Shown here piece by piece: positions 8,152 through 57,275 of a stretch of DNA of 64,000 nt. The stretch spans positions 210,745 through 274,744 of the forward strand of contig NC_089320.1 in the NCBI RefSeq assembly GCF_036669915.1. The letters run 5' to 3'. The first letter of the stretch is position 1. Every line of letters begins with the position of its first letter. The notes under the pieces are model-generated. The model was not told the DNA's origin and searched no databases. It worked only from the letters and a program-made list of their open reading frames with translations. Both the position numbers and the translations under genes were made by a program. This DNA is from Pocillopora verrucosa. Lineage: Eukaryota; Cnidaria; Anthozoa; Scleractinia; Pocilloporidae.

Positions 8152-10206
8152 CTTGTGCCAGTCGACGATTAGCAAATAGCCTGAATTAGATCGGACTTCA
8201 AATAGTCTCTCGCATCCATTGATCCGTGCAGAAAATGTTCAAAACATTTCCAACTTGAATGCCACTGACTGGGTTTACGTCGAGATCGGACCAATGTGAC
8301 GTGGAGACAACAAATATGGCCACTAGCCTCTCTTTCAGTGATCCGAGCCCGCCGTGCATAAATAGCGGTTTCCCGAAATGACCCGTGGCAACCGCGGGAT
8401 GATATTCGCGCGATTATCTACTAACTTGTTACCCAAGGCAAACCGTGGGTGGACAGTGATGGAAAATGGTTTATACGAGATGTAAAATTATTAAGGCCAA
8501 AATCAATATGTGAGTATGATGTTTTACAGAAAGGCGATTGTGATTCGTGAATTTATGAACCAGCATACTGGCGTTAGACGTGATTTGCCTCCTGAAATAC
8601 TCTTAACCCGTGGATAATTTCTTACATTTCCTAAGAAACCGCAGGATTTCCATGAAACTCCTCTCACAAAAAGGGTGAATTTACATTATGCCATTTAAAT
8701 TCGTGACGCGTGAAATGGTGTAATACACATAGGACCCGCCCCCCGCCCCCCCTCTTTTCTACCCTGTAAAGCAGCTGTCCGCTCTCCTAAATCATTCACG
8801 CATTTTAATTGGTTCTCACTTATGATCTATTGGAGGAAAGTCGTATAGATGACGTCACCTTTAGCAACGTTTTGCTTTGTTGTTGTATAAACTAATATAT
8901 TTGATGTTGCAGTAATAGAACACAGAACACGTCAAGATGCAGTAAGAATATCAGTGACACATATATAGTACACTCCGCTAAGCCTGATGTCTCCCTATTT
9001 TGTTCTTACAACACTTTGACGTCATCTGTAATCTCTTACTGAACAGATGCACGACAATATGGAATTAATTTTGTAAATGGAGCTGTAAACCTATATTGAC
9101 TGCATGTGTATGTCGGTTGTCTCTCGCAAAGATATTTACCTAAGTTTGTTATATTAATTAAAACTATGGGTAATAGCGAATATATTACTTGCCCTTGTTT
9201 TCACAATAGATTCATTTACTTTTAGCTGTGAAAAAAAAGAAAACTGTGGCCCCTAATTTTACAATAAGTTTTACTAATCATCGGCATTGAGTATGAAGCT
9301 TAAAGAATAATTTCCCTTTATGAAACCCTTCATTAGTTGACGAGACCACAAACTGTTTTATTGCGTGTACAAACAAAAAGGATGTCATTTGTTCTTGAGA
9401 GAAAGGACCTTCAGACAGGTTGTCTTTGGGTTTCTCTGGCCTCTACTCATATCCTCAGCCTACATCAGGAATTTTAAACTTTAACTTAACAGGAAAAATG
9501 ATCAAAATGGAGAAAAGAGAGGATCACAATTATTAGCAACTTGTAACGTTTGCCAAAGAAAACCTATTTTGATTTGCATTTTCAATAATTAGTTTTAAAG
9601 ATTATTGTTTGCCAGTGTTTGCGATGTCTCTAGAGAAATGAGCAGAAAACAATGAAGGACCTGTAAGACGTTCTGCTTTTGTTCTGTCTCTTTTAGATAT
9701 TAGAGTCATTACATTAACTCCTCCCAACTACTGAAACAGAATGAAGAAGGAGGCGTAGGTGCTAATTACGAATAATCACCTCATGGCAGAAACGAAAATT
9801 TAAAGAATTATTTTCCAAGGACAGATCCATCAGAGTAGGTGAATTGTATTTACGTTTCCAACTTTCTTGGAATCCTGGAGAAAAATTAAATACAGCAAAA
9901 TTTGACTCTCTTAACAAAGCGACTCAGTTTACACCCCTTGCGAAATTCGGTGTTGAGCACTTTGTTTAACAAGACTCTTTTCATTGTTCTCCAGATATAA
10001 CAGTGTAGTTAATGGATTACGTAAAACTGGCGTGTTTCAAGCCAATATCACGATTTGTTCACGCGTGCAATATTCATTTGCTTCTTAGAGTGTGGTGCTT
10101 AAGAAGTCGCACAACATCAGTCTACGCGGCCTTTTACCAACCCTGGACAATCTGGTACCTTCACGGAGGTTTGCGTCACATTTAAAGTACATTCTCGACC
10201 GTAAAC
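8152..10206. other. Intergenic region between GOLIM4 and the first FoxQ2 gene
   Basis: This 2-kb spacer holds the 5' regions of two divergent genes: GOLIM4 to the left (-) and the forkhead gene to the right (+). A C-rich patch lies near 8730-8755. I see no coding exon and no clear TATA box for either gene. Confidence 0.5.
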
Positions 10207-10887
10207 ATGGCATCTCAGAGTTTTAATCTTCCAAGTGTCTCAGCTATTCCAGCGTTCACTCACTCGTTTTATCATTGCGGATACTTCAACCCAGAGATGT
10301 CAACCTGTCTTAACAGAAATGGCTCTAGTATATGGTCTAGTTATGTGAATCCATGTTACCACCAAAGCTTTCAAGGCATCCCGTATCAACCCGCAGATGA
10401 AGAAAAACCAACTCAATCATACATTGGTCTTATTGGAAAAGCAATTCTAAGCTCTCCACAGCAGAAACTTGTTCTTGGTGATATCTACAACTACATTCTA
10501 ACAAATTATCCTTACTTCGGGAATAAAGGACCTGGATGGCGTAACTCCATACGCCACAACTTATCACTCAATGATTGCTTTGTTAAACTGGGTCGCTCTC
10601 CAAACGGCAAAGGACACTTCTGGGCAATCAATCCACTTAACTATGAGGACTTCAGTCGGGGAGAGTACAAACGCAAAAGGGCCACGAGAAGAAACCGGGA
10701 GAGAAACGGAACTGAGATAAGAACAAATGAAATCTCGAACAACTATCCAGCTGCTCAAACGAAGTGTAAAAGTTTTTTACAAAATAGAGGTTTTCACATC
10801 GAAACTCTTTTATCCAATAAATGGGAAGAGAAAGGCAGCGCTGGAGCACTGAATACAACGTCAGCATTTGCTGTTGTCGCCAGCTAA
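10207..10887 (+). CDS. FoxQ2-like forkhead transcription factor, paralog 1 (intronless)
   Basis: A 226-residue nuclear DNA-binding protein in one exon, with an ATG start. The forkhead domain spans about residues 67-158 and includes SYIGLIGKAILSS, the recognition helix WRNSIRHNLSLNDCF and the wing sequence GKGHFWAINPLNYEDFSRGE. NYEDFSRG followed by a basic stretch is typical of the FoxQ2 class. Near the C-terminus, FHIETLL (196-202) fits the eh1-like FxIxxIL motif that recruits Groucho/TLE co-repressors. Upstream, CYHQSFQGIPYQPADEEKPT is shared with paralog 3. It is convergent with paralog 2. In known animals FoxQ2 genes pattern the aboral or anterior pole; that role is inferred here. Other Fox classes are unlikely but were not tested by phylogeny. 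Confidence 0.88.
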   Translation: MASQSFNLPSVSAIPAFTHSFYHCGYFNPEMSTCLNRNGSSIWSSYVNPCYHQSFQGIPYQPADEEKPTQSYIGLIGKAILSSPQQKLVLGDIYNYILTNYPYFGNKGPGWRNSIRHNLSLNDCFVKLGRSPNGKGHFWAINPLNYEDFSRGEYKRKRATRRNRERNGTEIRTNEISNNYPAAQTKCKSFLQNRGFHIETLLSNKWEEKGSAGALNTTSAFAVVAS

Positions 10888-12847: not shown

Positions 12848-13552
12848 TCAATCGGATAAAATGTTTTCGATGTGAAAACTTCTTTGGCGCAATCCACTTT
12901 GACTGTGTGTGAAACTGTTATCACTCTGACGAACTTCCTCTTTGGCACACAGAGGAACAACATCTTTACATGATTTCCAGCCTTGACCTTTTTCTAATGT
13001 CTGTAAACTTTTTTCCGATGCAATGCTTCTCTGACTTTTTTTGGAAGATCTTTTCCGCTTGTACCCTAAATCTCCACGACTGAAATCCTCATAGTGAAGT
13101 GGATTGATTGCCCAGAAGTGTCCTTTGCCGTTTGGAGAGCGACCCAGTTTAACAAAGCAATCATTTAGTGATAAGTTGTGGCGTATGGAGTTACGCCATC
13201 CAGGTCCTTTATTTCCGAAGTAAGGGTAATTTGTTAGAATGTAGTTGTAGATATCACCAAGAACAAGTTTCTGCTGTGGAGAGCTTAGAATTGCTTTTCC
13301 AATGAGACCAATGTATGACTGAGTTGGTTTTTGTTCATTCTTGCGTTGGGTCGGAATTCCATGAAAGCCTTGATGGGAACATGGACTTACATATCCTGGA
13401 ACATAAAACGAAATCTCTGAGCTGGCGTATCCGAAGTACAAAGACGAGTAGGGAAAAGTTGGAGCAGCGGGTACAGCTGGGTGGCTTGGGGCAGCTGGAA
13501 GGTAGAACCTTAGAGGCGTCGCATTTACAGGCCGCCAGAAACTACTTTCCAT
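12848..13552 (-). CDS. FoxQ2-like forkhead transcription factor, paralog 2 (intronless)
   Basis: The frame is open further upstream (to 13633) but begins there with TTG. The first ATG is at 13552, which gives a 234-residue protein beginning MESSFWRPVN. The same start context (MENSFSPVN) occurs in paralog 3, which supports this choice. The forkhead box is nearly the same as in the other two paralogs. The sequence after the wing (RGDLGYKRKRSSKK) differs. The protein ends in an eh1-like FHIENIL followed directly by Ser-Asp-stop, so the repressor motif is the extreme C-terminus. A CCAATATAAAA element lies about 113-124 bp upstream of the ATG. Likely a sequence-specific repressor; the FoxQ2 class is assigned by eye. 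Confidence 0.86.
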   Translation of the reverse strand: MESSFWRPVNATPLRFYLPAAPSHPAVPAAPTFPYSSLYFGYASSEISFYVPGYVSPCSHQGFHGIPTQRKNEQKPTQSYIGLIGKAILSSPQQKLVLGDIYNYILTNYPYFGNKGPGWRNSIRHNLSLNDCFVKLGRSPNGKGHFWAINPLHYEDFSRGDLGYKRKRSSKKSQRSIASEKSLQTLEKGQGWKSCKDVVPLCAKEEVRQSDNSFTHSQSGLRQRSFHIENILSD

Positions 13553-13664
13553 TGGAACAAACGTTTTGGCCCCAGCTTTAACTTTCAGTTTGAGAACGTC
13601 AATCACTTCACTTTTAGTTTGGCTGTTGCCCAAATGAAATTCAAGTTTGCTCAGATGAGTAAGC

Positions 13665-13675
13665 TTTTATATTGG
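13665..13675 (-). promoter_or_regulatory. TATA box with adjoining CCAAT, FoxQ2 paralog 2
   Basis: On the minus strand the sequence reads CCAATATAAAAG. TATAAAA (13671-13665) would place initiation near 13640, leaving a 5' leader of about 90 bases before the ATG at 13552. Paralog 3 has CCAATATGACA at a similar distance, as if its TATA had decayed. Confidence 0.55.
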
Positions 13676-16543: not shown

Positions 16544-17389
16544 TCATTCATAAGAAGTCTGTTTTGCTGGGTCATTCTCTCGGTGATGAAATCTGCGTAC
16601 TTCAAGTTCTTTTTTGACAGGTATCTGTCTCTGCGACACAAAGGAAAATGCTGACACCGCTTCGTGCGTTTCACTGCTTTTGACATCCTCCCATTTGTCT
16701 GATAGTAGCGTCTCGATGTGGAAACCTCTATTTTCTGCTTCATCTGGAAAAATGTTATTGGTGCAACGGATTTCTTGTGATGAGCACCTCGGAACATGTC
16801 CAGTTGTGTTCAATTTCGTTCCACCACTCTCTTTTCTCTCCCGGTTTCTTCTCGTGGCCCTTTTGCGTTTGTACTCTCCCCGACTGAAGTCCTCATAGTT
16901 AAGTGGATTGATTGCCCAGAAGTGTCCTTTGCCGTTTGGAGAGCGACCCAGTTTAACAAAGCAATCATTGAGTGATAAGTTGTGGCGTATGGAGTTACGC
17001 CATCCAGGTCCTTTATTCCTGAAGTAAGGGTAATTTGTTAGAATGTAGTTGTAGATATCACCAAGAACAAGTTTCTGCTGTGGAGAGCTTAGAATTGCTT
17101 TTCCAATAAGACCAATGTATGATTGAGTTGGTTTTTCTTCATCTGCGGGTTGATACGGGATGCCTTGAAAGCTTTGGTGGTAACATGGAATACACGGACC
17201 AACATAACCTGGCAGAACTCTTACGTCTTTACCGAGGAAAGAGGAAGACATTTCTTGGCTGACGTACCCACTGAAAAAGGACGAATACGGGAACATTGGA
17301 GCTGCAGAGATGCTTGGATGATAAAAAGTCGCAGGGCTAACATTCACCGGCGAGAAACTGTTCTCCATTGGCTCAAACTTGGCGAACAT
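16544..17389 (-). CDS. FoxQ2-like forkhead transcription factor, paralog 3 (intronless)
   Basis: The open frame codes for 281 residues from the ATG at 17389, or 274 from the Met at 17368, which aligns with the start of paralog 2 (MENSF versus MESSF). I prefer the latter but give the longer frame. The forkhead domain matches paralog 1, including the basic tail EYKRKRATRRNRERK, except that YFRNKGPG replaces YFGNKGPG. The eh1-like FHIETLLSDKW is followed by a C-terminal extension of about 50 residues absent from paralog 2. A short insertion (VLPGYVGPCIP) precedes the shared CYHQSFQGIPYQPADEEKPT block. It has the same orientation as paralog 2 and is probably a tandem copy of one FoxQ2 ancestor. 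Confidence 0.86.
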   Translation of the reverse strand: MFAKFEPMENSFSPVNVSPATFYHPSISAAPMFPYSSFFSGYVSQEMSSSFLGKDVRVLPGYVGPCIPCYHQSFQGIPYQPADEEKPTQSYIGLIGKAILSSPQQKLVLGDIYNYILTNYPYFRNKGPGWRNSIRHNLSLNDCFVKLGRSPNGKGHFWAINPLNYEDFSRGEYKRKRATRRNRERKESGGTKLNTTGHVPRCSSQEIRCTNNIFPDEAENRGFHIETLLSDKWEDVKSSETHEAVSAFSFVSQRQIPVKKELEVRRFHHRENDPAKQTSYE

Positions 17390-19124
17390 CAGAATTTATA
17401 TCACGGATCAAAGTTTCGAGACTTTCACAGGATCCACACTCGATTGAAAATGAGCATGGCACGAGTGAACAAACTGTCATATTGGACTGTAAAACACTAT
17501 GCTTTACGTAATTGATTAATGACGCTTTTACTGACATAAACAATCAAACTCTTTGATATTGGTTTTCCAGCAAAAAAAGGCTTTCATTCAACTACATTTG
17601 GTGCCAATTTGTATACATGGACAAACAATGTTCAAAACTAATTTCAAGCTGAGTGAAAGAAAATCTCTTTAATTAAATGTGTGGGTTTTCAATTCAAATG
17701 AAATTCACAAGCATTGCAGACTTCTAGAGCTTATTCCGGTTGACATGTTTGTCCACTTATTCATATAATTAGCGCCCTTATAATTTATTTAGCATTTTTG
17801 AATAATTGTCACAACAACTTGCTAAACCTTAAAAAAGAAAGGTTTATTCTTCTTAAATCCCCTAGGATCCATTCCCACTCTTTTTTGACCGAGTACCTGT
17901 AATCTCACCGTTAAAAGACAAGACTGACCACAACGTGAAACCAAAAACAAGCAATTCCAAGTAGCTCAGAGCTGTAAAAAAGCGAGGTTCATGTTACATT
18001 TCGTGATAAACGTGACAAGAAATACTGAACTAACTATTCGAAGTAATACAAGTCTGTTCCAGTGTTCTGTTTGTATAAGAATGGAGTTAATATCACATCC
18101 GCCCGTACATTTGTTTGGCATTGTTTGTGTAACGTGCTAATGCTAGCGTTATTGTTTACGGATACAAAGGCGCGTGATTGCTTAGACTCACAAAGAAACA
18201 ATTCCCTGCAGTTTTTTTTCGGGGCTTCTGGTGAAACACACAAGTATTTTCGTGATCCAGCCTAACGAAGTCTTCATTTAATGCTAATTAACGCCAAAAC
18301 AACCATAAAGCTTCTCTCTCTCTCGTGTAATTCATTTATTTTTTCGTTGTAACGTTCAGTACTAATTAAAGAGTGGGTCGACTCCACTACAGTTGAAGAT
18401 TTTATAAAAAAAAAAAAAACCAAATTGGTTTTCGTGGTTAAAAATCTACTAATAAGGAAAGGTACTTTGGTTTCCAAATTCATTCTCTGAGTCTATTTAA
18501 CCCTTATAGCCACGACTTGAGGACTCAAAGTGTTTTTTTGCACAAAACTCGAATATTGGCAGCGTAACCGTCACTGCATTACTATGCAAAACGAATGTGG
18601 TGAATTTTTCTCTTTCGCAGATAAAGAAGAAACAAAGAATGTAGAGCCCTTTTTGCAAGGGTGACAAGGATAATATCACAATTTAACTCTTTCATTCCAA
18701 TGAGCGCGTTATTAAGACCAGTCAGGGTAATTTTACTGCTCTCTCTGCACTAAATTAAATTGAAAACGTCACAAGAATTTTCCATCCAAGGGAAACAGAT
18801 AAAAGATTCCCCCACCACTCAACAACGATCATAGGCGGACGAAAGGCTCGACTGCAGCCTCACCCATTAGCGCATGGAGCGTAGGACAACTGTTACTTCT
18901 CATCCAATGATAACTGAACTTTTCTCGGTATCGAAACAATAATTGTACATCATTATCAGACTGAATTCACTAGAAATAAAGATTTGTTTCTGTAAGATAC
19001 AAGAAAATTGAAGTTCTCATTTGGTTACTTCTGTTATTTTGTTTTCAGTTCTGTTTTGAACAGACTATAATGAAGTGTCTTCTTGAAAACAATTTATCAT
19101 TAGTGGTGAGATGTTGTCACATTT
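17390..19124. other. Intergenic region upstream of FoxQ2 paralog 3 and downstream of EXOC8
   Basis: No coding exon is recognised. A short poly-A tract occurs near 18407-18419. On the minus strand near 17475-17485 the sequence reads CCAATATGACAG, a degenerate counterpart of the paralog 2 TATA region. Confidence 0.45.
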
Positions 19125-25100: not shown

Positions 25101-27628
25101 CCTTGAAAGCATCCTTCAAACCTGAGATGTGCATCAAAACCAATGACTCATTATAAATTTGTAACATAACCACCAACATGCATTAGATGTAAACCTAAAA
25201 ATCTGTTTATTGTCCAGCTTATTGTCAGATGCTCTTATTATTAGAGATGAATAGTCTGAGACTTTGCACTGATTATACAATCAAATACTAAACATAATGC
25301 TGTTAGTTGTAATTAGTCCCTGTATTATGGCTAACAATCTCAATAGGATATATAAATTGATCCAGAACACAGGCACAGTTCTCACCACAGTACAGTGCTA
25401 TTCAAGACCTTACCACCAACTTCAGTTAGATTAGAGCTCACTAAAAAAATTATATACAAGTAACCTCATAATGTACTAGCTATTTACCTTCTTTTCTAGC
25501 CTGTTATTGGTTAAAAACGAGTCACAAAATAAAGAAACTGAAGAGGGTGAGGTCAAGGTGATTGCCCAACAATATACATACCATCAGCACTTGTCATATT
25601 CACCACTGCAACATTTTCTAGTTCAAACAGGCTTTGGAACTTAAAACGAACTGGACCACGCCTTAGAAAAGCGAAAATATTGAAGACAATCAATAGTTAC
25701 TAATAACCCTGGGCAAGTCTGTATCAATACCATGGTATTAAGATTAATTCCAAATATAGACTCAGACTAACTAACAAACAAGTCGAGACAGGTTAAGTTT
25801 CATATGAGATCAGTTTAAGGATAAAAACTGTATATGAATTCTAAGATTTCACAGAAAACTGACCTAGGAAAAGATCAGATCACTTTCATAACTTTTCTTT
25901 ATGTCTCTTTAGTTCAATTGTAAACTTAACATCATCACCAGTGAACCATGGATCAATACAACTGCTGTTGACAGTACCTGTTTTGAATGATGTTTGCGAC
26001 CACCATACTGTCATGTAACAGGAAGGCATGAATTTTAGATTTTGGAAGAAATGTTTCTGGATCCACCTCAACCAGGTCTCCCTCAAAAACACAGTTCACA
26101 TCAGTGATATCTAGGACACTCTGTAAATTTAAATCGTAAAATTAATTGACCATCTATTTCATTCCTAGTTAATTTCATTTTTAACAATATTCATTTCAAA
26201 CATATAAATATAACTTACAGCCAGACCCTCTACTGATTCTATTGAGCTGCTACCTTTTTCATCTTTCTTTGAGGGTTTCATTGAAGAATTAGGATCTAAA
26301 TTAAAGAACAGCAATAGTTTTGTGCAATTATTAAAATTGTTAATAGGGTAATATAATTATTATAATAACTTAGAATGGTACTTATAAATAATTATTTACA
26401 CTGTAAAACAAAATTTCACACACCACTAAGAGTGTTTTTTTGGCCAGAAATATGTACTCTTTCTGAAGAGTATTGACTAAAACAAGACTTTACAAAATGC
26501 TAAGGGGAGTGAAGGATGGGATAAGGTAACAGGGGGCAAATACACCCATCAGTTAGTTCCATCTTCTTTCAGATGAGGAAGTAGATACTTAAACAATTAA
26601 AACATGCCTGTGGATCAACATGTGGATCAAACATAAAACTTTTTATGTTTGGTTGTTCTCAAACATGCCTTGTACATGAATTAGTGAATATCACCACTTT
26701 CTTATTTTAAAAGATATTTTAACCTGTTGTGATTCGTAATATTAACTGAATTATTAGATCCAAGCTTAAGAGCTTTAATGACAAAATAGACAGAGAGCTA
26801 TACAGAGATTTGGCTACTCAACGTAGTTCTTATGTTGTGAGTATTTCCAATTTCTTTGGTATATACATATTACCTTGTGTTCCAAATAAAGACATGTCTT
26901 CCTGACTGCTGAGTATCGCTTTTTGCTCCGCCAAAAAATGTCCCAACTGATACATTTCTGCTTCTAGATCTAATAGATTATGTTATGGAATCTGCATCAC
27001 TGACATTTATTACGATTCGTAACTAATCCAAATCCACATGTACAACATCCTGCAGGACGTTCTGTTCGCATTGGTCTTGAAAAATCCTTCGAAAGAGTGG
27101 TATATTAAGGATACCGATAAACAAGCACACGAAGTTAGTTTTCTGTTTGCATCTTTAATCTTACAATCTCGATTGTACTCTTTCGGCATCCCCCATCACT
27201 GAGCACACACACCCTCGCCTGATTAAAAGCTAAAGGATACATGATATTTCCTTTGATGTTTCGATGAACTGCATGTAGTTCTTATAAACATTTTTCTTCA
27301 AGCTAACCGCAGTTTCTTCGCTTAAAGTCTGAATACGCTTTCGATGATCCTGAAGTTCAGCATCAGTGTCACACTTCGCAGACAGATCCCTGACATCTGA
27401 AGCAAAAAAAATAAGGATGGAAGGTGCAGTCCACCTAGAGCTCTGTATCATGATAAGATAGTCAATTACAGGTACATTAAAACGAAAAATGATAATTTTG
27501 AAGAAACAAAGGGTGGTTATCGCCTAATTAGTTTTCATGCAATACTTACATTTATCAGGATCGAAGGAAGAACTTGAAAATTTAAGCGCGAGTTGAGGAG
27601 AAGAAACATCATCCAATTTGACCGCCAT
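19125..27628 (-). CDS. EXOC8: Exocyst complex component 8 (Exo84), 21 exons
   Basis: Subunit of the exocyst, which tethers secretory vesicles to the plasma membrane. Exons: 27550-27628, 27241-27396, 26874-26969, 26219-26295, 25978-26120, 25582-25661, 25048-25121, 24413-24680, 23691-23740, 23375-23468, 23180-23231, 22810-22954, 22275-22327, 21966-22093, 21678-21808, 21261-21380, 20702-20807, 20118-20212, 19916-20011, 19485-19556, 19125-19229. All join in frame to about 739 residues (human about 725). Family landmarks are the N-terminal YVRDLSAKCD...LQDHRKRIQ and NVYKNYMQFIETSKEIS, a PH-like region (residues about 136-240), the exocyst motif MPEDLDMFIAQRDFERAMELI and the C-terminal helical bundle (ATRRTVSLLVRLGRASEACQ, AFVVWAKSELKHFVSRF). 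The linker at about 276-318 carries five NPF motifs. One intron is GC-AG. Confidence 0.95.
20116..20117 (-). other. GC splice donor in EXOC8
   Basis: The exon 20118-20212 ends CAG and is followed by GCAAGA instead of GT. The reading frame continues correctly into the exon at 20011, and the flanking bases fit the strong consensus expected of GC-AG introns. Confidence 0.8.
20334..20402. repeat. Degenerate 10-11-bp tandem array in EXOC8 intron
   Basis: Successive variants of a unit like CGACAGGCT / CAACAGGCTA / CGATAGATTA are strung together. It looks like a small decayed minisatellite. Confidence 0.5.
24413..24550 (-). other. Five-NPF linker of EXOC8
   Basis: Within one exon the protein reads five Asn-Pro-Phe triplets in about 40 residues (at about 278, 287, 296, 307 and 316), separated by acidic or polar residues such as VED and DDD. 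NPF is the ligand of EH domains (Eps15, intersectin, EHD). The human protein has one such motif (ATNPFEDD) at the matching place. Confidence 0.8.
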
Positions 27629-27803
27629 GTTTGTTTTCGTACCCACCCGGAAGTACTGGCACTAGGAATCGATCACTAAGAGTCATGGGATTTCAACATG
27701 ATCTCGAGACCGAAATAACGATTATCGTTATTTCGGTCTCGAGATCATGTTGTGGGATTTCCACTTCCGTCACCCAGACCTTCTCAGTTTTTGGGATTAC
27801 AAG
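27629..27803. promoter_or_regulatory. Bidirectional promoter of EXOC8 and EXOSC10
   Basis: Only 175 bp separate the two start codons. An ETS-type CCGGAAGT lies at 27647-27654 and an opposing ACTTCCG at 27763-27769. Both start codons sit in YY1-like contexts: AAACATGGCGGTC for EXOC8 and AAGATGGCTGAC for EXOSC10. No TATA box is seen. This is a typical housekeeping arrangement, which would couple expression of an exocyst subunit and an exosome nuclease. The middle is occupied by a palindromic insertion. Confidence 0.7.
27686..27760. mobile_element. 59-bp perfect palindrome with 8-bp direct repeats (minimal MITE)
   Basis: Positions 27694-27752 form two 29-bp arms that are exact reverse complements around a single T. 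The element begins CAACATGATC and ends GATCATGTTG. It is bounded on both sides by TGGGATTT (27686-27693 and 27753-27760), as expected of an 8-bp target-site duplication. Such duplications are made by hAT, P, Merlin and some other DNA transposases; which one is unknown. It lies between the two promoter halves of EXOC8 and EXOSC10. Confidence 0.75.
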
Positions 27804-30800
27804 ATGGCTGACCACATGGAAGAAGACGATGCAGAGAGTGTTTTGCCCGGAATAGGAGATCTGAAATCGTTTTCTCAGGTATTTATAGATGTTACTGCTT
27901 AATTTTTATATAATTTAATTCTTCTTAGACGAAAGGGAGCCAGCTTTGCATGAATGCGACAAGGAAATTCTGATTTGTGCAGCCTTCAATTTCGAGAGTT
28001 TATCATCACATGCTTGTCGATAATAATTCTATCACATATCTATTTTGATCCTCAAAAAACGCTGAGGTTATGTTACATTCCTCAGTGCATCTATAAAAGC
28101 TTGGAATACGACAAGGAATTCTGGCTAGGTCTAAATAATTGTCTTGATAAACAGTTCTTTGGTCAAGATCGACCGTGATATCTCCCTAACAGGCCCTTCC
28201 GCAAGCTTAAGTAAGCAACTTCGGATTAGATGGCTATCTCACAGCCAACCTATTTTTAAGAGATAGAATTTCAAACTCACTTTGCTGGCTTGATGATTAC
28301 ATGGTGTACACTTGGATCAGAGTAGACCCCTAGGACAATGTTGATGTTTGTTTATCGAATTCAAGCGCTGGAGTTTGACTTTGTTCAAGGGGGGAGGGCA
28401 ATTTGCAACCTAGATCAGTTATTAAGCAAATCAGGGTCCGAGTACTTTTGCCACTAGTAAGGAGCAAGTCATGAAATGTTACTTGCTTGCCTTGCTTGTA
28501 GATTGTTACATTTTTTGAGGGATTGACCGATTGTAAAAGGATAAAGGATAGACCAATAATAATCTGCTTGCTGTCCTCCTTAGGAATCCTTAGCTGCTAT
28601 TGTCCAAGCTGTAAGGGAATCTGGCAACTTGCCTGGGGCAGGAGAAGATCATGACTTTTACTACAGTTTTCCAGATTTCAGGGAATTTAGATCAGCTCAA
28701 GGAGCAAGGCTGCTTAGCAAGTAAGTGACTTCTACTGTTTAATGCAACTGGTGAATTATAGAATTTGTGTAACATTTACCACCATTAAGTTGCAGTAGCA
28801 GAGGTACTTGTAGTTACCTTCTGTTCGAATGGATGCTTTTCATTTGTTCTGTTTAGGTCATTTATATGATTAGTGAGTTTTCTTCTGTTAAAAGTAATTA
28901 TTTTCTTATTCCCTGTATCTCAATAATGATTAATGATTTTTATTGTGTTAAGCTTATGACATTTGATAGAACCAAAGAGGCATCAATGTCTGACTGTTTT
29001 CACAGCATTGAAAATCTGTTGCATCATTGGAAGGTTCATTGTCAGTGGCCCTCAGATACTCATGCTATTGATCCAGATAGCGATGAGCTGATTGACAGTC
29101 TTGTAGAAGCCAATGACATTCTTCTGGAAAGAGTGGTGAGTTTCTGAAGATTATTATTACTGCTTCTTTGTTGGAGGCTCATCTTTATTAATAAAAATAT
29201 TTGTCTCATAAGGACACAAACCTCGATGAGGCTGCAGGCCTGAAATCAGACAAAACAAACCAGACAGTTGCTGGAGCTCCTGGGCAACAAGGAACGCCAA
29301 TTGTGTCAAGTTGGAACAGAGCTAGGGTACAGTGTAAACACACAATAACTTTCAAATGAATAGGAAAAGTATAGATTCACTAAACGTCTATGACATATGT
29401 ATAATTTAATAACGGTAAACTATAAGTGGCACCATTTTTCCAGAATGTGTTGTAACAAATAGGGGTGTGACATATATGCAAGAACATGTGGAAAACTTAT
29501 GGCAAATTTTTATCAATTTACTCTATTCATCGAAAATTTATTTTTAAGTCTGTATCAATTGGCTGGTCACTAAGCTAGAATTACCAATGAATGAACAGAA
29601 TATTTCCTGTTGTTTATGTAAAACTTTTTTGAAAATCTGACAGGATTGAAAAAAATACTGAGTGAACAAATAAACCAGAGTAAGATCAAACATATGTCTA
29701 AGTCAGAGTCAATATATGATTTCCATACTACAGCTTCTAAAATAATAGATTAGAACCAATAAAGCAACCAAAATATGGCAACTTTCTCAAGACTCCAATT
29801 GTGATTTCTTTTGATTTCTTTTCAAAAACTTTTTTCCAAAATATTACAGTAGGTGCCAAACTTGAGGTGCGGCTTATTTGTATGTGCAGCTTATATGCTG
29901 GTGTATATGATACTTAAAATCAATACAACCTTATACATGTTTTAAAAATAAGTACATCTCATGTAAAATTAACTGACTGCATTATTATAATTATCAAAGA
30001 TGTTTTTTGTGTGTGTTATCAACTTACAGAAAGACATCCCTGGAAAGAAAGATACCAACTTCCGTTTTCTCATGGCTAAACACATTCAGAGACCACAACT
30101 GAAATTTAAAGACAAGATTGACAACAGCAATACTCCTTTCATTCCAATCATCAAGAGAAAACCTAATTCTTTAAGGCCCCTTGAAGTTGGTATGTTGGAA
30201 AATATCAGTGCCTTTTATATAGAGTCAGTGTAAAAAATACAAACCGCATATTACAGATTTGGCCCCATTCTTGTCAGAAATAGAAGGAAAACTAGTCTTG
30301 TATTCAATACAGAATAAATTTAATTGTATATGGTAAACTAGTAAACCAAGAACTAGGAGAGATGAATTTGATTTAAATATGTCAACTCTGGGGAGTGAGA
30401 CTGATTTGTGTATGGTGTTTTTCAGATGAGACAAGCAGCAGTAGGCATCTACCTGGAGATGCACAAGTACCATCAGCTATTGCTGATTTTGTGCATCAGG
30501 AGAGAGTAAAAGGAATAAGCAGCTCTTCTGCAAACAGGTGATCATTATAGAATGTCAGTGCCAAGTTTTCCACCTTTTTTTTCTTTGTTGCACTCTGTTT
30601 TGGTTCTCTGTGACTTCTTCTTGGACCCATCTGCTATAAGCCCTAAATTTGTTTACAAAACTACATTAGCATGCAAATGTTTAATCATTATTGTTGTCTT
30701 TTGTGTGGATTTCAGTACAGCCCATCCATACCAATATGAACTGGAAGTGTTTCAACCTCCAGAAAATCAGCTGATGCTGCATAAAGAGGAGGTTAGCTCA

Positions 30801-33800
30801 AATGTACAGAATGATACATAGTGTTTACAAAATGGACATTAAAGAATTGGAGATTAGACAAGTGATTTTAAGGTTAAGGTTACTTATTTCACTTCCAATT
30901 ACCTTTTTTTAGATCTGTGTAACTAGATAGTTTACATTTTTCTAGAATGCTTCTGTTGAAATCACAGTGCACTTACATATAGTGAATTTAACTGTTGTGA
31001 AAGACTTGAATTATGAAAACCGAAGACTTGTTCAATATTTCTTTATCCACTGTTGGTGACCAATAGTAAGCTGAAGATTGGTTATTTCTGAGCTTGCAAA
31101 AGTCATCAACAGCTAGCTAGTGCTTAGCTATATCCCTCCAGATGTACTTTTTGTGGTTTTCAATTTAGGTTTTATTAAAATGAATCACAGTAGATTAAAA
31201 CACTTGTAGATTATTCTGACCTGTGAAAGCAAAGAGATTGACCTTATTTATGTTTTGTTTTGTTTTTGTTCTGTTGCCAGCTGTATGATGAACTTGAGAA
31301 AACTCCATTCACATTGATAGAAACAACAGAACAGCTTCATGAGCTTTGCCAGCATCTTGCAACTGTGACAGAGTTTGCAGTGGATCTAGAGGTACAGTTG
31401 CTAATTATGTTTCCTAGAAGTGAATAATAATACATGTATTTAGTCAGTATGTGATAGAATAATGGTAACTGGCTTCTGATAAAACAGGTATACTCTTGCT
31501 ACTGAACATTTATCTTTTTTTGCCAATGAATGTGATCTTTGAAGAATAAAGCCTGAATTCTTGGCAAAGTAACAAAAAAAATTTTACCATTGCTTACGTG
31601 TCACCCTGTATAATTTACATTATTTTGGGTGAATTTTTCAAAACAAAATGCATTCAAAAAAATATCAGTTCTTTTCATCAAAATCGCACATTTCTGACTT
31701 TAAATAGGCAAGTAGCTTGCTGTTTCTTTTTATCTTGATTTGTGGTGGTTCAAATATGTTGGCATGATGTTCATATCACCTTGTATGTTTTTGCTCTGTA
31801 GGCTCATTCCTACAGATCTTTCCAGGGATTTTGTTGCTTGATGCAGATATCCACACGACACCAAGACTTTCTTATTGACACACTGGAGCTGCGCAGTGAG
31901 CTTCAAATCCTCAATGACTATTTTACCAATCCCAGCATACTTAAGGTAAAAATTTAAATGTACCTTCTATAATTATAGCAAGCCAGTAAGGCAGAAAACC
32001 ACTTCATCTACATCTTCTGTGTGAATCTAGTGTGCAGGTTTTGTGTTATGCCATAGAATTTGCTATTTGTTAGTTACTTGAGGTTTGACTATTTCTATTT
32101 CCTGCAGGTTTTTCATGGAGCTGATATGGATATTGGATGGCTACAGCGAGATTTTGGTATTTATGTTGTCAATATGTTTGACACAGGCCAGGCTGCTAGG
32201 GTGCTAAACTATGGGAAGTACTCCTTGGCTTTCCTGCTGAAAAAGTTCTGTGATGTCACAGCAAATAAACAATATCAACTGGCAGATTGGAGAATAAGGT
32301 TATTAGTGGTTTTGTGGTGTAACCTTTGTTTTTTTACTGCTCAAAATTTAGACAAGTACAAGACAAGTGAAAAGTGAAAAAAAGAGCTGAGTCCAGATCG
32401 TTCATTGGTTTTGTTATTTATATTGAATTAGTTTTTCATGATGTTAAAATTTGATGGACAAAATCGCAATATAGTAACAATGATCATTCCATGTAGGCAT
32501 TTAGATTATTTTGATTATCAAGTTTGTTTATTTCACAGACCTCTGCCTTCAGAGATGGTGCATTATGCCAGAGAAGACACACATTATTTGCTTTACATTT
32601 GTGATCGTCTGCATAATGAACTCATTAAACATGGAAATGTAAATAACAACTTATTACAATCAGTGTACTCCAGGAGCAGGGACATTTGCTTAAAGGTTTG
32701 TTGCAGTGCTGCTCCATATAGCTGACATTTCTTGCTTGTGAACTTTGAATTAGCCCAAGTAGTTGAACATGTAGTTTACCATGCCCTTTCACTCCCAAGA
32801 TCTCACAAGTAATTCCCCTTACAGTCTGCTATACAATTGTCATAATGTTTGTTTGATGAATATGGTATTGGATCAACTGATAATCCCTTAATTGATGTTT
32901 TTGTTCATTCTCACCACTTGCCTGCTTGATATGGTATTGATATTGTAAGGATAATTTCTGTCTTGATCACACATGGGTGTTAAAGAGTTAAGGTCCATGG
33001 GATGCTAGTCCAGAGTAGGTAACTCTCCCCCCACCCCCCCCTACCCTGCAGAATTTATTGGATTTCTCTGAGAATTCACCAATATCCATTTTGGTGACCT
33101 AATTAATTGTTTTTTTGTTGTTTTTTATTTGTATAGCGTTATGAGAAGCCCTTATTTACCAGTGAATCTTACAGAAAAGTTCTGGAGAAACATAAGCGGA
33201 CATTTAACCCCGTGCAGGTCTTTGATTCTTCTTAGAAGCATTAATTTAGAAAATTAAACAGTCAATACAAATCTGCTATGCCTGAATTTATTTGTGACTT
33301 CAACTTTATTTTTCTTGCTCGTCTAATGATTTCAAAGGAATCTGTGACATAGATTGTTTGTTGATTTACTTTTCAATGATAAGAATGAATTATTATTTTA
33401 CAGATGCATGCCTTCCGCCTTCTGTTCACTTGGAGAGATAATATGGCACGAGAAGAGGATGAAAGCTATGGGTAAGGCTAAATTTGTGGAAAGGGTACTC
33501 GTCTGTCCGCTTGAATACTTTATTTAGTCAACAAACTTTGAAAATGAATTATCTTTGGTACAAAGGGCTTGTTTGTAGATTTAACCTTTTTAAATTACAC
33601 CTTTAACGTTTATGACCAAAATGTGAAGCTCATCAATTTTTTATTGCAATAAGATCTCACTTTAAGGGATCAATTATTAGCAAGGAAATCCAATCTTGGT
33701 TATGTTTAGGCACTACATCTCTTGTTTTATCGTTTCTTTTCTTTCAGTTTTGTCATCCCAAATCACATGATGTTCCAGATTGCAGAAACCTTACCGAGGT

Positions 33801-50397: not shown

Positions 50398-53300
50398 TTA
50401 AGGGTACAAAGCGTAAACATCTGCGCATGTCTCCCCGGCATTATTGCCCTCGGAATAATCTGCCAAGTCTTGCCCATACCATATTAGGAACTGCTGTCCA
50501 ATCGACACAACCAGAGGGGTGGGGAGCAGGTTAAACACAAGCGTCGGGGAGTTGACATGAGCACCGTCAAGTTGGTACCTATAGCCATCAATGCCTTTCA
50601 CGAACTCAGCAAGCGGAAGAACAGTCTTGTTAGGGTAAGTTATCACCGTCAGTAGACTATGACGTCCGAAACCTGTGTGTGAACATCCCCACTTTGTGGA
50701 TTCGAGGTAAGTATTACATGTCACGGAGCCATATGTATGCACAAGTTTGAATGAGTAGATTTTACCGGCCTCTTGGATTTCAAAGGATCCAAAGGCGTCA
50801 TTTTTTGTCCCAAAGCAGACAGGATCGGTGTTGATCTTTTTCCAGTTATCTGTCAAGAAAATTGGTAGGTTTTAAAAATGATGTTAGCAAGTCAGGTCAA
50901 AGAAAAGTTTTGATCAAAATAAAGAGTTTGTCGTTAGAAATTAGAAAAAATCTCACTTTGCAATTGTCCAGACAAGATTAGTCAGAATAATATTTTGATA
51001 AGTATCACCGCGCGTGAATAGTGTCGAAAATTACAATTTTCTTGACCAGAAGAACGCCTCGTTCAATATTACGAAGCTGTGACAGATATGAGCGTTAGCT
51101 GCGTTAGCTGCGTTAGCTGCGTTAGCTGCGTTAGCTGCGTTAGCTGCGTTAGCTGCGTTAGCTGCGTTAGCTGCGTTAGCTGCGTTAGCTGCGTTAGCTG
51201 CGTTAGCTGCGTTAGCTGCGTTAGCTTGCATTGCACAAGCTACACTTAAATGATTAACAACACTTTGGTGGTTGATAAATCAAATCTTTCGGCTTTCTTC
51301 TGTTGATATGGTGTAAAAAGGAGTGCCGGGGACCTTAAGTGTAACGTAGGTTACCTAAATAAGATTTCGTATTCAGTTGGAGATCAACATATACCTGAGC
51401 AAAAGTGCCGTCCATCTCCAAGGTGTCCAAATTGGCAGCTGCAATTGAATGATCCAGCGGTGTTTGTACAATCGGCCGCATCATGACAGTAATGGCTACC
51501 ATCGTTACACTCATCGATATCTAAACATTGTAAAATCAAACAGCAAAAACTGGAGGAATTAAAAACACTTCAGGCAATTTACACCTTGCGTGAAATTCCC
51601 TATAAATTGGGGAAGGGAATCAAATAGAGTTAGAGGCCAGTAAGTGTAGCAAACTCCATCGATGACTTTTGAAGGCATAGAATGTGCATTGAAGTGATAA
51701 TAGTAGATAATAAGGGGAAAAAAAAGCCAACAAGTTGGTAGCCACGTTCGGCTTTGTTTTTGGTCTCTGCCTATGGCATAGCTGGTTAGCCTTAACGAGG
51801 CTAAACTAGCTGTAGATGGTATCTATCTTGATGGCCTACATGCCTATAGAGCAGGCGTAATCAACATCGTGTTAAGTGCGCATCTGTGGCTTGAACATGC
51901 TACTCAGTTACCTCTCGTATCCCCATGTATCAGTTACTTTCTGTCGTTACTCTCTGTCTATCTGTCTCTCACTGTCTGTCTCTCAATCTGTCTGTCTGAA
52001 TAAGATATAAATGATAGCTAACCTAGTTTTGTTAACTTTCTCTTATTCGATATGTAAGCCTTGCTGTCACCACCATCGTTGGCGGTCTATATACATGTTT
52101 TCTTCTTGTCTTCATTGTCTTCTTCATTGTATGCAAATCTTACTTTTACAGGTCTCTCCATCGTCAATATATCCAGGTCTACAATGTGAGCACTGATATG
52201 AACCCAAAGTATTGACACATTCGCGCTCAGCGGGACAATCGTGTTTTCCTGATACGCATTCATCAACATCTACACAGAATTTAAGAAAAAAATCAAAACT
52301 AAAAACTCCCCAGGATGAGACACCTCGTCCAACTTTATGAAAGTGGCCCTGCGTATCTGTGTACTTTTCTTTCTGCTCCTCTTCCTGCCTGTCCTTTTCA
52401 CATCTTTTAAGTCAGGATTCTTTTGCTTGTTCTCCTGTCTTTTCCCCGTAATGTTGCACGAATAATTTTTTGGAAATTATAGCTGGTTAACTTTATTGTA
52501 AAATCAATTAAATATTGAACTGTCTGAACTCATCATTTTATCGTTAGGTGTTTTTTCCCTCACCTGTTTTACACTGAACTCCCTGATATCCAGAAGGACA
52601 AATACAGCGGTATCCATGGTTACCAAAGTCCGCTTGACAGGTGGCGTGATGGGCGCATGGAATGCTCTCACAAGAATTCTGAAAGATAAGAAGAAAATGA
52701 ATCAATTTATACAATAAATCAATTAAAACATGATGAATAGATAAATAAATAACATGAAAGGGAACAACACTGTACCCGAGTTTTTTTACCCGTAAACTGA
52801 TCACCTTTGTAAAACTGAATGTTACCAGACCGTACTTACAAAAATTTCTGTGTACACAAATCCGCTTTTGTCTTCGAGGGAGTCGGGGACTTGTAAGTAG
52901 GTCCTGTCATTCAGCTCACATGTGAATGTTCCATCTGACAGTGGACCATAGTTGTAGGACACGCAGTTTGGTTCAAGATAGCATCTCAATTCACAAATAT
53001 CCTTGTCTGGCAGTTGATCTCTCCTAATGACGTGATTTGTTAAGATCTTATTTTTTGTTCCTTCTTTGAATTCAATCACTCGACAATCATCTGAAGGAGG
53101 AAGAAGGAATAAAGAAACCAATGAGAAATATAATCAGCTATGTCCAAAAAGCATGAACAGGTGGCAAACCTTTCCATATTATGGGTAGTAATTCAGTCAA
53201 GTTGTCTTCATCGCGAAAGCCTTATGTACGGCATTTACATTTCCAAAAAGTTAATTTCTTTCGACCTTGTTTCTTTTACGAGAGATGGTCAAAACTAATA

Positions 53301-56960: not shown

Positions 56961-57275
56961 CTTGCTCAATAATCCATTTTTTTGGATTTGCCGCGTCACG
57001 ACAATGTTCCATTGATATCATTCCTCATCAAGAGAACATCAAGAGAGTATCAATTGAATATCAACAGTTGATATTCTCTTGTTCCTCATATCATCTTGGA
57101 TGAGATCATTCATTTAATAAGATTACATTTAACTTTATTTGCTCCAACTTAGGGGATTTTAATTCCTTTGACAACTTTTAACGTTCCTCGTGAGATCAGA
57201 TGTGGAACAAATCTCACTGTACTTGCTCCTTGCCATGTTATCGGAGGGTCGAATTTCACTGATGTAAAGGCTTAC

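What the first reader, a model, noticed from the sequence alone, without database searches (positions are those of the whole stretch)
27686..27760. Perfect 59-bp palindrome with 8-bp target duplication inside a bidirectional promoter
Two 29-bp arms match perfectly around one T, and TGGGATTT flanks both sides. The element is little more than two fused terminal repeats, so it cannot code and must have been mobilised in trans. It sits between the ETS and YY1 sites of EXOC8 and EXOSC10, so it may change promoter spacing or form a cruciform. Perfect arms imply a recent insertion.
Basis: partly seen in the sequence, partly recalled or inferred. Interest (0 to 1): 0.75.

Follow-up and report, generated by a model that had tools for sequence, protein, structure and literature searches.

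The report
Scar left by a departed transposon
The 59-base palindrome is most likely not a tiny jumping element but the scar left when a roughly 9,300-base transposon cut itself out of a gene promoter, and the same genome holds many similar scars that may record how the cutting and repair were done.

Summary
The interpretation changes once the genome is searched. The arm is the tip of the terminal inverted repeat (TIR) of a family of mostly ~9.3-kb foldback-like elements, no coding found, with 7-8-bp target duplications. The 59-bp palindrome itself was found once. Four other loci carry different fused TIR tips of 24, 36, 36 and 45 bp, each with its own duplication (one with a mismatch); all five joins overlap by 1-11 bp. 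Framed searches found no other family member from 18 to 99 bp. This is the anatomy of a P-element excision footprint (PMC2895639, Table 1). As a control, TIR variants related to two elements here that bear a P-type transposase domain give 79 fused-tip places (reversed-pattern control 13); 17 of 20 read carry the duplication. Best reading: a large P-like element inserted between EXOC8 and EXOSC10 and left, and end joining fused its tips. P membership is not proven: no transposase with this TIR was found, and four of ten tips are longer than in the control.

The parts
27686..27693 (.). left copy of the 8-bp target-site duplication TGGGATTT
   Evidence: exact, abuts the palindrome
27694..27722 (+). 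left arm: outer 29 nt of the TIR of the ~9.3-kb family (A variant, GAAATAACG)
   Evidence: same TIR tip, A or T variant, on the large copies
27694..27734 (+). left TIR tip as retained: 41 nt match the A-variant TIR
27723..27723 (.). central unpaired T, position 30 of the left TIR tip
27724..27734 (+). 11-bp overlap ATCGTTATTTC shared by the left and right tips: the join
27724..27752 (-). right arm / right TIR tip as retained: 29 nt
27753..27760 (.). right copy of the 8-bp target-site duplication TGGGATTT
   Evidence: exact, abuts the palindrome
27542..27628 (-). stretch translated for the first coding exon of EXOC8 (exon end not determined; no Pfam match by itself)
   Evidence: translation; the next exon carries VPS51_Exo84_N
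27804..27880 (+). first coding exon of EXOSC10 (approximate end)
   Evidence: sequence, start codon checked; downstream exon 32057-32377 has DNA_pol_A_exo1

Best explanation
It is an excision footprint. (1) A ~9.3-kb foldback-like element, no coding found in it, inserted between EXOC8 and EXOSC10 and duplicated TGGGATTT (inferred from the duplication and the TIR tips). (2) A transposase acting in trans, most likely of the P superfamily, cut it out with strongly staggered cuts, leaving TIR tips on both chromosome ends (inferred; shown by others for Drosophila P). (3) The tips were joined by end joining. The TIR holds an inner palindrome (GAAATAACGAT-T-ATCGTTATTTC), so the two tips share ATCGTTATTTC and fusing them gives a perfect palindrome (the join is shown by sequence; the enzymes are inferred). 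What remains is duplication + tip + tip + duplication. I put 0.72 on excision plus end joining, and within that about 0.65 on a P-superfamily transposase.
For: The 21-bp arm core has 63 places with up to 2 mismatches (31 + 32; reversed-pattern control 0 + 0), many as inverted pairs about 9.3 kb apart. Of 16 pairs with the outer 14 nt (CARCATGATCTCGA) exact at both ends, 10 are 8,876-9,463 bp, three are 24, 36 and 59 bp, the others 13,637 (nested Gypsy), 7,331 and 2,247 bp. Framed searches over 18-99 bp (controls 1, 0, 1) gave 11 places, 5 of them footprints. All 5 have a duplication (4 exact 8-bp, one 7 of 8) and read fully as left tip + right tip with overlaps of 11, 2, 8, 1 and 3 bp and no filler. 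Control: CATAGTTA tips, the ends of two elements with a P-type transposase domain (L049, L053) and of related variants, give 79 fused-tip places of 16-46 bp against 13 for the reversed pattern, and 6 against 1 at 47-77 bp; 17 of 20 read have the duplication. The 6 of 50 listed that match the L053 tip have tips of at most 20 nt. Drosophila P excision gives the same product (PMC2895639, section 7).
Against: No transposase was found with this TIR: the seven large copies read have no open frame over 136 aa (introns not excluded), six frames tested gave no Pfam hit, and the P-like loci examined have other ends or none resolved. Four of ten tips here are 29, 29, 38 and 41 nt, beyond the control's maximum of 23, so a longer stagger or partial gap synthesis must be added. 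Five footprints is a small number, and one (36 bp on C7) fits only a TIR variant that I partly assumed. In the control, identical fused tips recur: 33 distinct among 50, one 27-bp sequence 8 times, with different targets in three copies read; recurrent joining at the same microhomology explains this, but so would mobility. 27 of the 50 carry a tip variant (GAGGAG) whose parent I did not read. 19 of 73 exact tips were unpaired and could hide intermediate deletions. The 11-bp join of the 59-mer would also suit slippage without transposase.
Confidence: 0.72

Rival explanations
1. Transposase-independent collapse in place: the foldback element extrudes as a hairpin or cruciform, and replication slippage or hairpin cleavage deletes nearly all of it between short repeats near the stem base, like the 'nearly precise excision' of Tn10 (recalled, not looked up).
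For: The parent has 1.3-kb arms at 94% identity and the 59-mer joins at an 11-bp repeat that each TIR carries.
Against: Three of 5 joins share only 1-3 bp, short for slippage. CATAGTTA tips, ends of elements with a P-type transposase domain, give the same products with few over 46 bp.
Confidence: 0.18
2. A 59-bp miniature element (two fused TIRs) that moves as a unit in trans.
For: TIR tips and an intact 8-bp duplication. In the control, identical fused tips do recur at different targets.
Against: Only one copy of the 59-mer found; the sister loci all differ in sequence, join and target; a 24-bp sister would have to be mobile too.
Confidence: 0.08
3. Excision footprint, but of a hAT-type rather than a P-type element (a variant of the best explanation; its probability lies inside that one).
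For: 8-bp duplications suit hAT (PMC3942097, passages); hAT ends beginning with CA are recalled.
Against: Two of 10 large copies have 7-bp duplications; 11 of 12 fit neither recalled hAT consensus. hAT footprints do not keep TIR bases (recalled).
Confidence: 0.08

Closest known systems
Drosophila P-element excision footprints (17-nt overhangs, Pol theta end joining; PMC2895639)
   Same: Target duplication + TIR tip + TIR tip + target duplication; joins at short or longer microhomology; CATGATGAAATAAC(AT)GTTATTTCATCATG, 14 isolates, is likewise a palindrome (Table 1, Rad51-mutant flies).
   Different: Natural loci, not a laboratory assay; a different TIR; tips up to 38-41 nt instead of at most 17; the parent is ~9.3 kb with no coding found. 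Many fly products also lose one tip (Table 1); such products would escape my framed searches.
Galileo (P superfamily, Drosophila; PMC4168063)
   Same: 7- or 8-bp duplications; one structural group consists of two TIRs (passages).
   Different: TIRs were not compared and no Galileo transposase was searched for. Galileo's long TIRs are from memory.
P-like elements of this same genome (L049, L053)
   Same: Ends begin CA and end TG, 7-bp duplications; fused-tip palindromes of their tips and of related variants through the genome.
   Different: TIR CATAGTTA...; 3.4-3.8 kb with a P-type RNase H domain, frames broken by stops; tips of at most 23 nt in the 50 listed.
MITEs
   Same: Short, non-coding, two TIRs, target duplication.
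   Different: No amplification seen: each of the five sequences was found once.

Membership tests
P superfamily (for the parent element) | 7-8-bp target-site duplication | tested here: met
   10 of the 13 large pairs had both flanks read: 8 have 8 bp, 2 have 7 bp
P superfamily (for the parent element) | P-type transposase encoded by the element or by a partner with the same TIR | tested here: inconclusive
   No coding found in the seven copies read. P-like transposases exist in the genome (L048 matches 6p5a, E 2.4e-5), none found with this TIR; other copies were not read
P superfamily (for the parent element) | fused TIR tips with the target duplication at former insertion sites | tested here: met
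   5 loci; the cleavage itself was not observed
P superfamily (for the parent element) | stagger of about 17 nt | tested here: inconclusive
   Retained tips are 16/16, 14/23, 10/29, 9/38 and 41/29 nt: four of ten exceed 23 nt
MITE mobilised in trans | many near-identical copies at different targets | tested here: not met
   One copy of the 59-mer found
hAT superfamily (for the parent element) | 8-bp duplication with the family's target consensus | tested here: inconclusive
   7-bp cases present; 1 of 12 exact 8-bp duplications fits a recalled consensus; the consensus was not in the passages read

The most novel reading that the evidence does not exclude
The TIR of this foldback family carries its own repair guide: palindromes inside the tip (TCTCGAGA and GAAATAACGAT-T-ATCGTTATTTC) let the two otherwise non-complementary overhangs anneal after excision, so that the scar becomes a perfect palindrome. 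The longer tips point to a transposase with a stagger of about 30 nt, different from Drosophila P. Genome-wide scars of the resident P families would then let both the cut position and the repair pathway be read from one assembly.
Probability: 0.2. Interest if true: 0.65.

Novelty: new variant of a known kind. Interest (0 to 1): 0.5.

Why it matters
Excision footprints of P elements are known from fly assays. Here what look like the same products lie in dozens in the genome of another animal, and few exceed 46 bp, so the cut position may be readable from genome sequence alone. The window case shows how a large transposon can leave a perfect palindrome in a bidirectional promoter, which is easily mistaken for a new class of miniature element. 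Palindromes of this kind in other assemblies should be checked against TIR tips before being called MITEs.

Tried and rejected
Chance palindrome: rejected. Copies elsewhere: 0 exact matches to the 21-bp core in viral contigs and in bacterial and archaeal genomes, 0 to a 17-bp core in viral contigs. One 18-bp match in a viral contig (L001) has no palindrome and was taken as chance. Sequence words in papers: 0 hits.

Rows dropped: the 20-bp CAACATGATTAATCATGTTG at three loci (L062, L064, L066) lies inside another repeat and has no duplication; a 25-bp place on C11 has none; the two hits have unrelated middles (flanks not read). So 5 of the 11 places found count as footprints; flanks were read for 9 of the 11. 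These searches need 9 exact bases at both tips, so mutated or one-tipped footprints are missed.

Autonomous partner: six regions with P-like transposase matches were fetched. Two have resolved ends (CATAGTTA..., 7-bp duplications), none with this TIR. L049 and L050 hold runs of N. The 13.6-kb copy on C8 holds a Gypsy element and no transposase frame in the 8 kb read.

Second palindrome in the window (57021-57089): its 18-base arm word occurs exactly at one other place in the genome; most near-matches share another word; parent not found.

One search scored tips against ten TIR variants, two read from L049 and L053 and eight inferred by me from the footprints, so tip lengths may be overstated. 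Against the two read TIRs alone the longest tip is 21 nt, but mismatching variants are then cut short.

Full report
Observation. The palindrome and its flanks are exactly as described. The arms are 29 nt with one unpaired T, and TGGGATTT touches both ends. The strand folds far better than shuffles, and no other perfect hairpin with arms over 16 nt exists in the 64-kb window. A scan for maximal 8-bp repeats 30-800 bp apart that abut inverted ends (at most 4 mismatches in 16) found only this place and 57021-57089 (five simulated controls gave 0, 0, 1, 0, 0). Domain hits support EXOC8 on the left and EXOSC10 on the right.

What the arm is. The window lies in a 353-Mb genome. The 21-bp core of the arm has 63 places there with up to two mismatches and none for the reversed pattern. 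Many are inverted pairs about 9.3 kb apart. Seven large copies were read. The TIR reads CAACATGATCTCGAGACCGAAATWACGATTATCGTTATTTCTAAATTGG and on, with variants. In L032 the outer 373 bp are identical on both sides, and the arms continue to about 1.3 kb at 94%. Copies L033, L034, L036 and L038 align to L032 at 97.8-99.9% apart from short repeat pieces; L035 and L037 at 85-97%. No open frame exceeds 136 aa in the seven copies, and six of the frames have no Pfam match. So the parents read are probably themselves non-autonomous, foldback-like elements; a gene split by introns is not excluded. Ten copies with both flanks read, of 13 large pairs, carry duplications: eight of 8 bp and two of 7 bp.

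The small loci. Patterns framing both tips found the 59-mer and a 45-mer (reversed control 1), then a 24-mer and two different 36-mers (control 0). Each has a target duplication: TGGGATTT, AGAACATT, TATGAGTG and CATCCACC exact, and GARATAAC with one mismatch. Four other framed places had none and were dropped. Each of the five is a left TIR tip joined to a right TIR tip; retained lengths for the 59-, 45-, 24- and two 36-mers are 41/29, 9/38, 16/16, 14/23 and 10/29 nt, and overlaps are 11, 2, 8, 1 and 3 bp, with no filler. The last one fits only a TIR variant (CAC ... CAAAATAACG) that I partly assumed. For the 59-mer the overlap is ATCGTTATTTC, half of a palindrome inside each TIR. It can equally be written as 30 + 29 nt joined bluntly.

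Why a footprint. Sizes are bimodal: among 16 pairs of exact 14-nt ends, ten lie at 8.9-9.5 kb and three at 24, 36 and 59 bp; the other three are 13.6, 7.3 and 2.2 kb. The 69-99 bp range holds no family member (2 hits, both unrelated inside; control 1). Nineteen of 73 exact tips were unpaired, two of them the tips of the 45-mer and of the second 36-mer; the rest may hide copies with a changed or lost end. Deletions at random points of a 9.3-kb element would rarely end within 41 bp of both tips; cutting at the ends does so every time. In Drosophila, P transposase leaves 17-nt TIR overhangs at the donor site, and end joining yields duplication + tip + tip + duplication, often at microhomology (PMC2895639, section 7 read in full; other sections seen as passages). 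In that table 20 isolates with long microhomology lose most of the tips; such scars would escape my searches. The zebrafish paper gives the 17-nt stagger for fly P and 8-bp duplications for a fish P-like element (PMC10983969, passages).

In-genome control. A P-type RNase H domain (PF21787) has 7 matches in this genome. One such protein, L048, matches the solved Drosophila P transposase (6p5a, E 2.4e-5), and a neighbouring frame has a P-type GTP-binding insertion domain. Matches at two other places lie inside elements with 7-bp duplications and TIRs beginning CATAGTTA, perfect over 25 and 31 nt (L049, L053); their frames hold stops. The framed pattern CATAGTTAN{0,30}TAACTATG has 79 places against 13 for the reversed pattern. 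I read flanks for the first 20 of the 50 listed: 14 have an exact 7-bp duplication, one an exact 8-bp, two 6 of 7, and three none. Over the 50 listed, 45 of 100 tips are scored 17-20 nt long and only 4 longer, up to 23; overlaps of 1-4 bp occur in 32, none in 8, filler in 10. Eight of the ten TIR variants used for that score were inferred from the footprints. The cleanest subset is the six that match the L053 tip: none of their twelve tips exceeds 20 nt. At 47-77 bp there are 6 places (control 1), 3 of them fused tips with filler. Two results temper the control. Twenty-seven of the 50 carry a GAGGAG tip variant whose parent I did not read. And identical palindromes recur (33 distinct among 50; one 27-mer 8 times; three of its copies have different targets). 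Recurrent joining at one microhomology explains this, as with the 14 identical fly isolates, but it does not exclude mobility of such small units.

What remains open. The family of the window lacks an identified transposase, and four of its ten tips exceed the control's maximum. A longer stagger, or partial gap synthesis before joining as described for flies (passage), would explain this. Slippage at the base of a long hairpin remains the main rival, above all for the 59-mer with its 11-bp join.

Effect on the genes. The insertion adds 67 bp between the two start codons, 175 bp now and so 108 bp before. Whether this matters for either gene was not tested.

Noticed in passing
57021-57089: A 53-bp imperfect palindrome, CAAGAGAA...TTCTCTTG, flanked by exact 8-bp repeats TTCCTCAT; its left half holds 11-bp units (CAAGAGAACAT, CAAGAGAGTAT, CAATTGAATAT). 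It may be another transposon scar; its 18-base arm word occurs exactly at only one other place, C9:307088.
   Followed up: partly
10186-10887, 12848-13666, 16544-17395: Cluster of long open frames with forkhead-like sequence; the 323-nt inverted repeat 10342-10664 / 13071-13393 (92%) lies in two of them in opposite orientation. The Pfam forkhead hit was tested only for the third.
   Followed up: no
40050-63525: Repeated minus-strand exons of what looks like a tandemly duplicated gene family ([37 protein letters not shown]); one copy has no Pfam match.
   Followed up: no
51092-51226: Perfect 15-copy tandem array of a 9-bp unit GCGTTAGCT, 100% identical.
   Followed up: no
L008, L009 (C14:22265152-22265239): TIR end duplicated head to tail (61-bp spacing) in one copy of the 9.3-kb family.
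   Followed up: no
C6:1544843, C3:7685259, C4:9366788: Fused P-element tips with repetitive, possibly templated filler, reminiscent of polymerase-theta insertions at fly P-element breaks.
   Followed up: no
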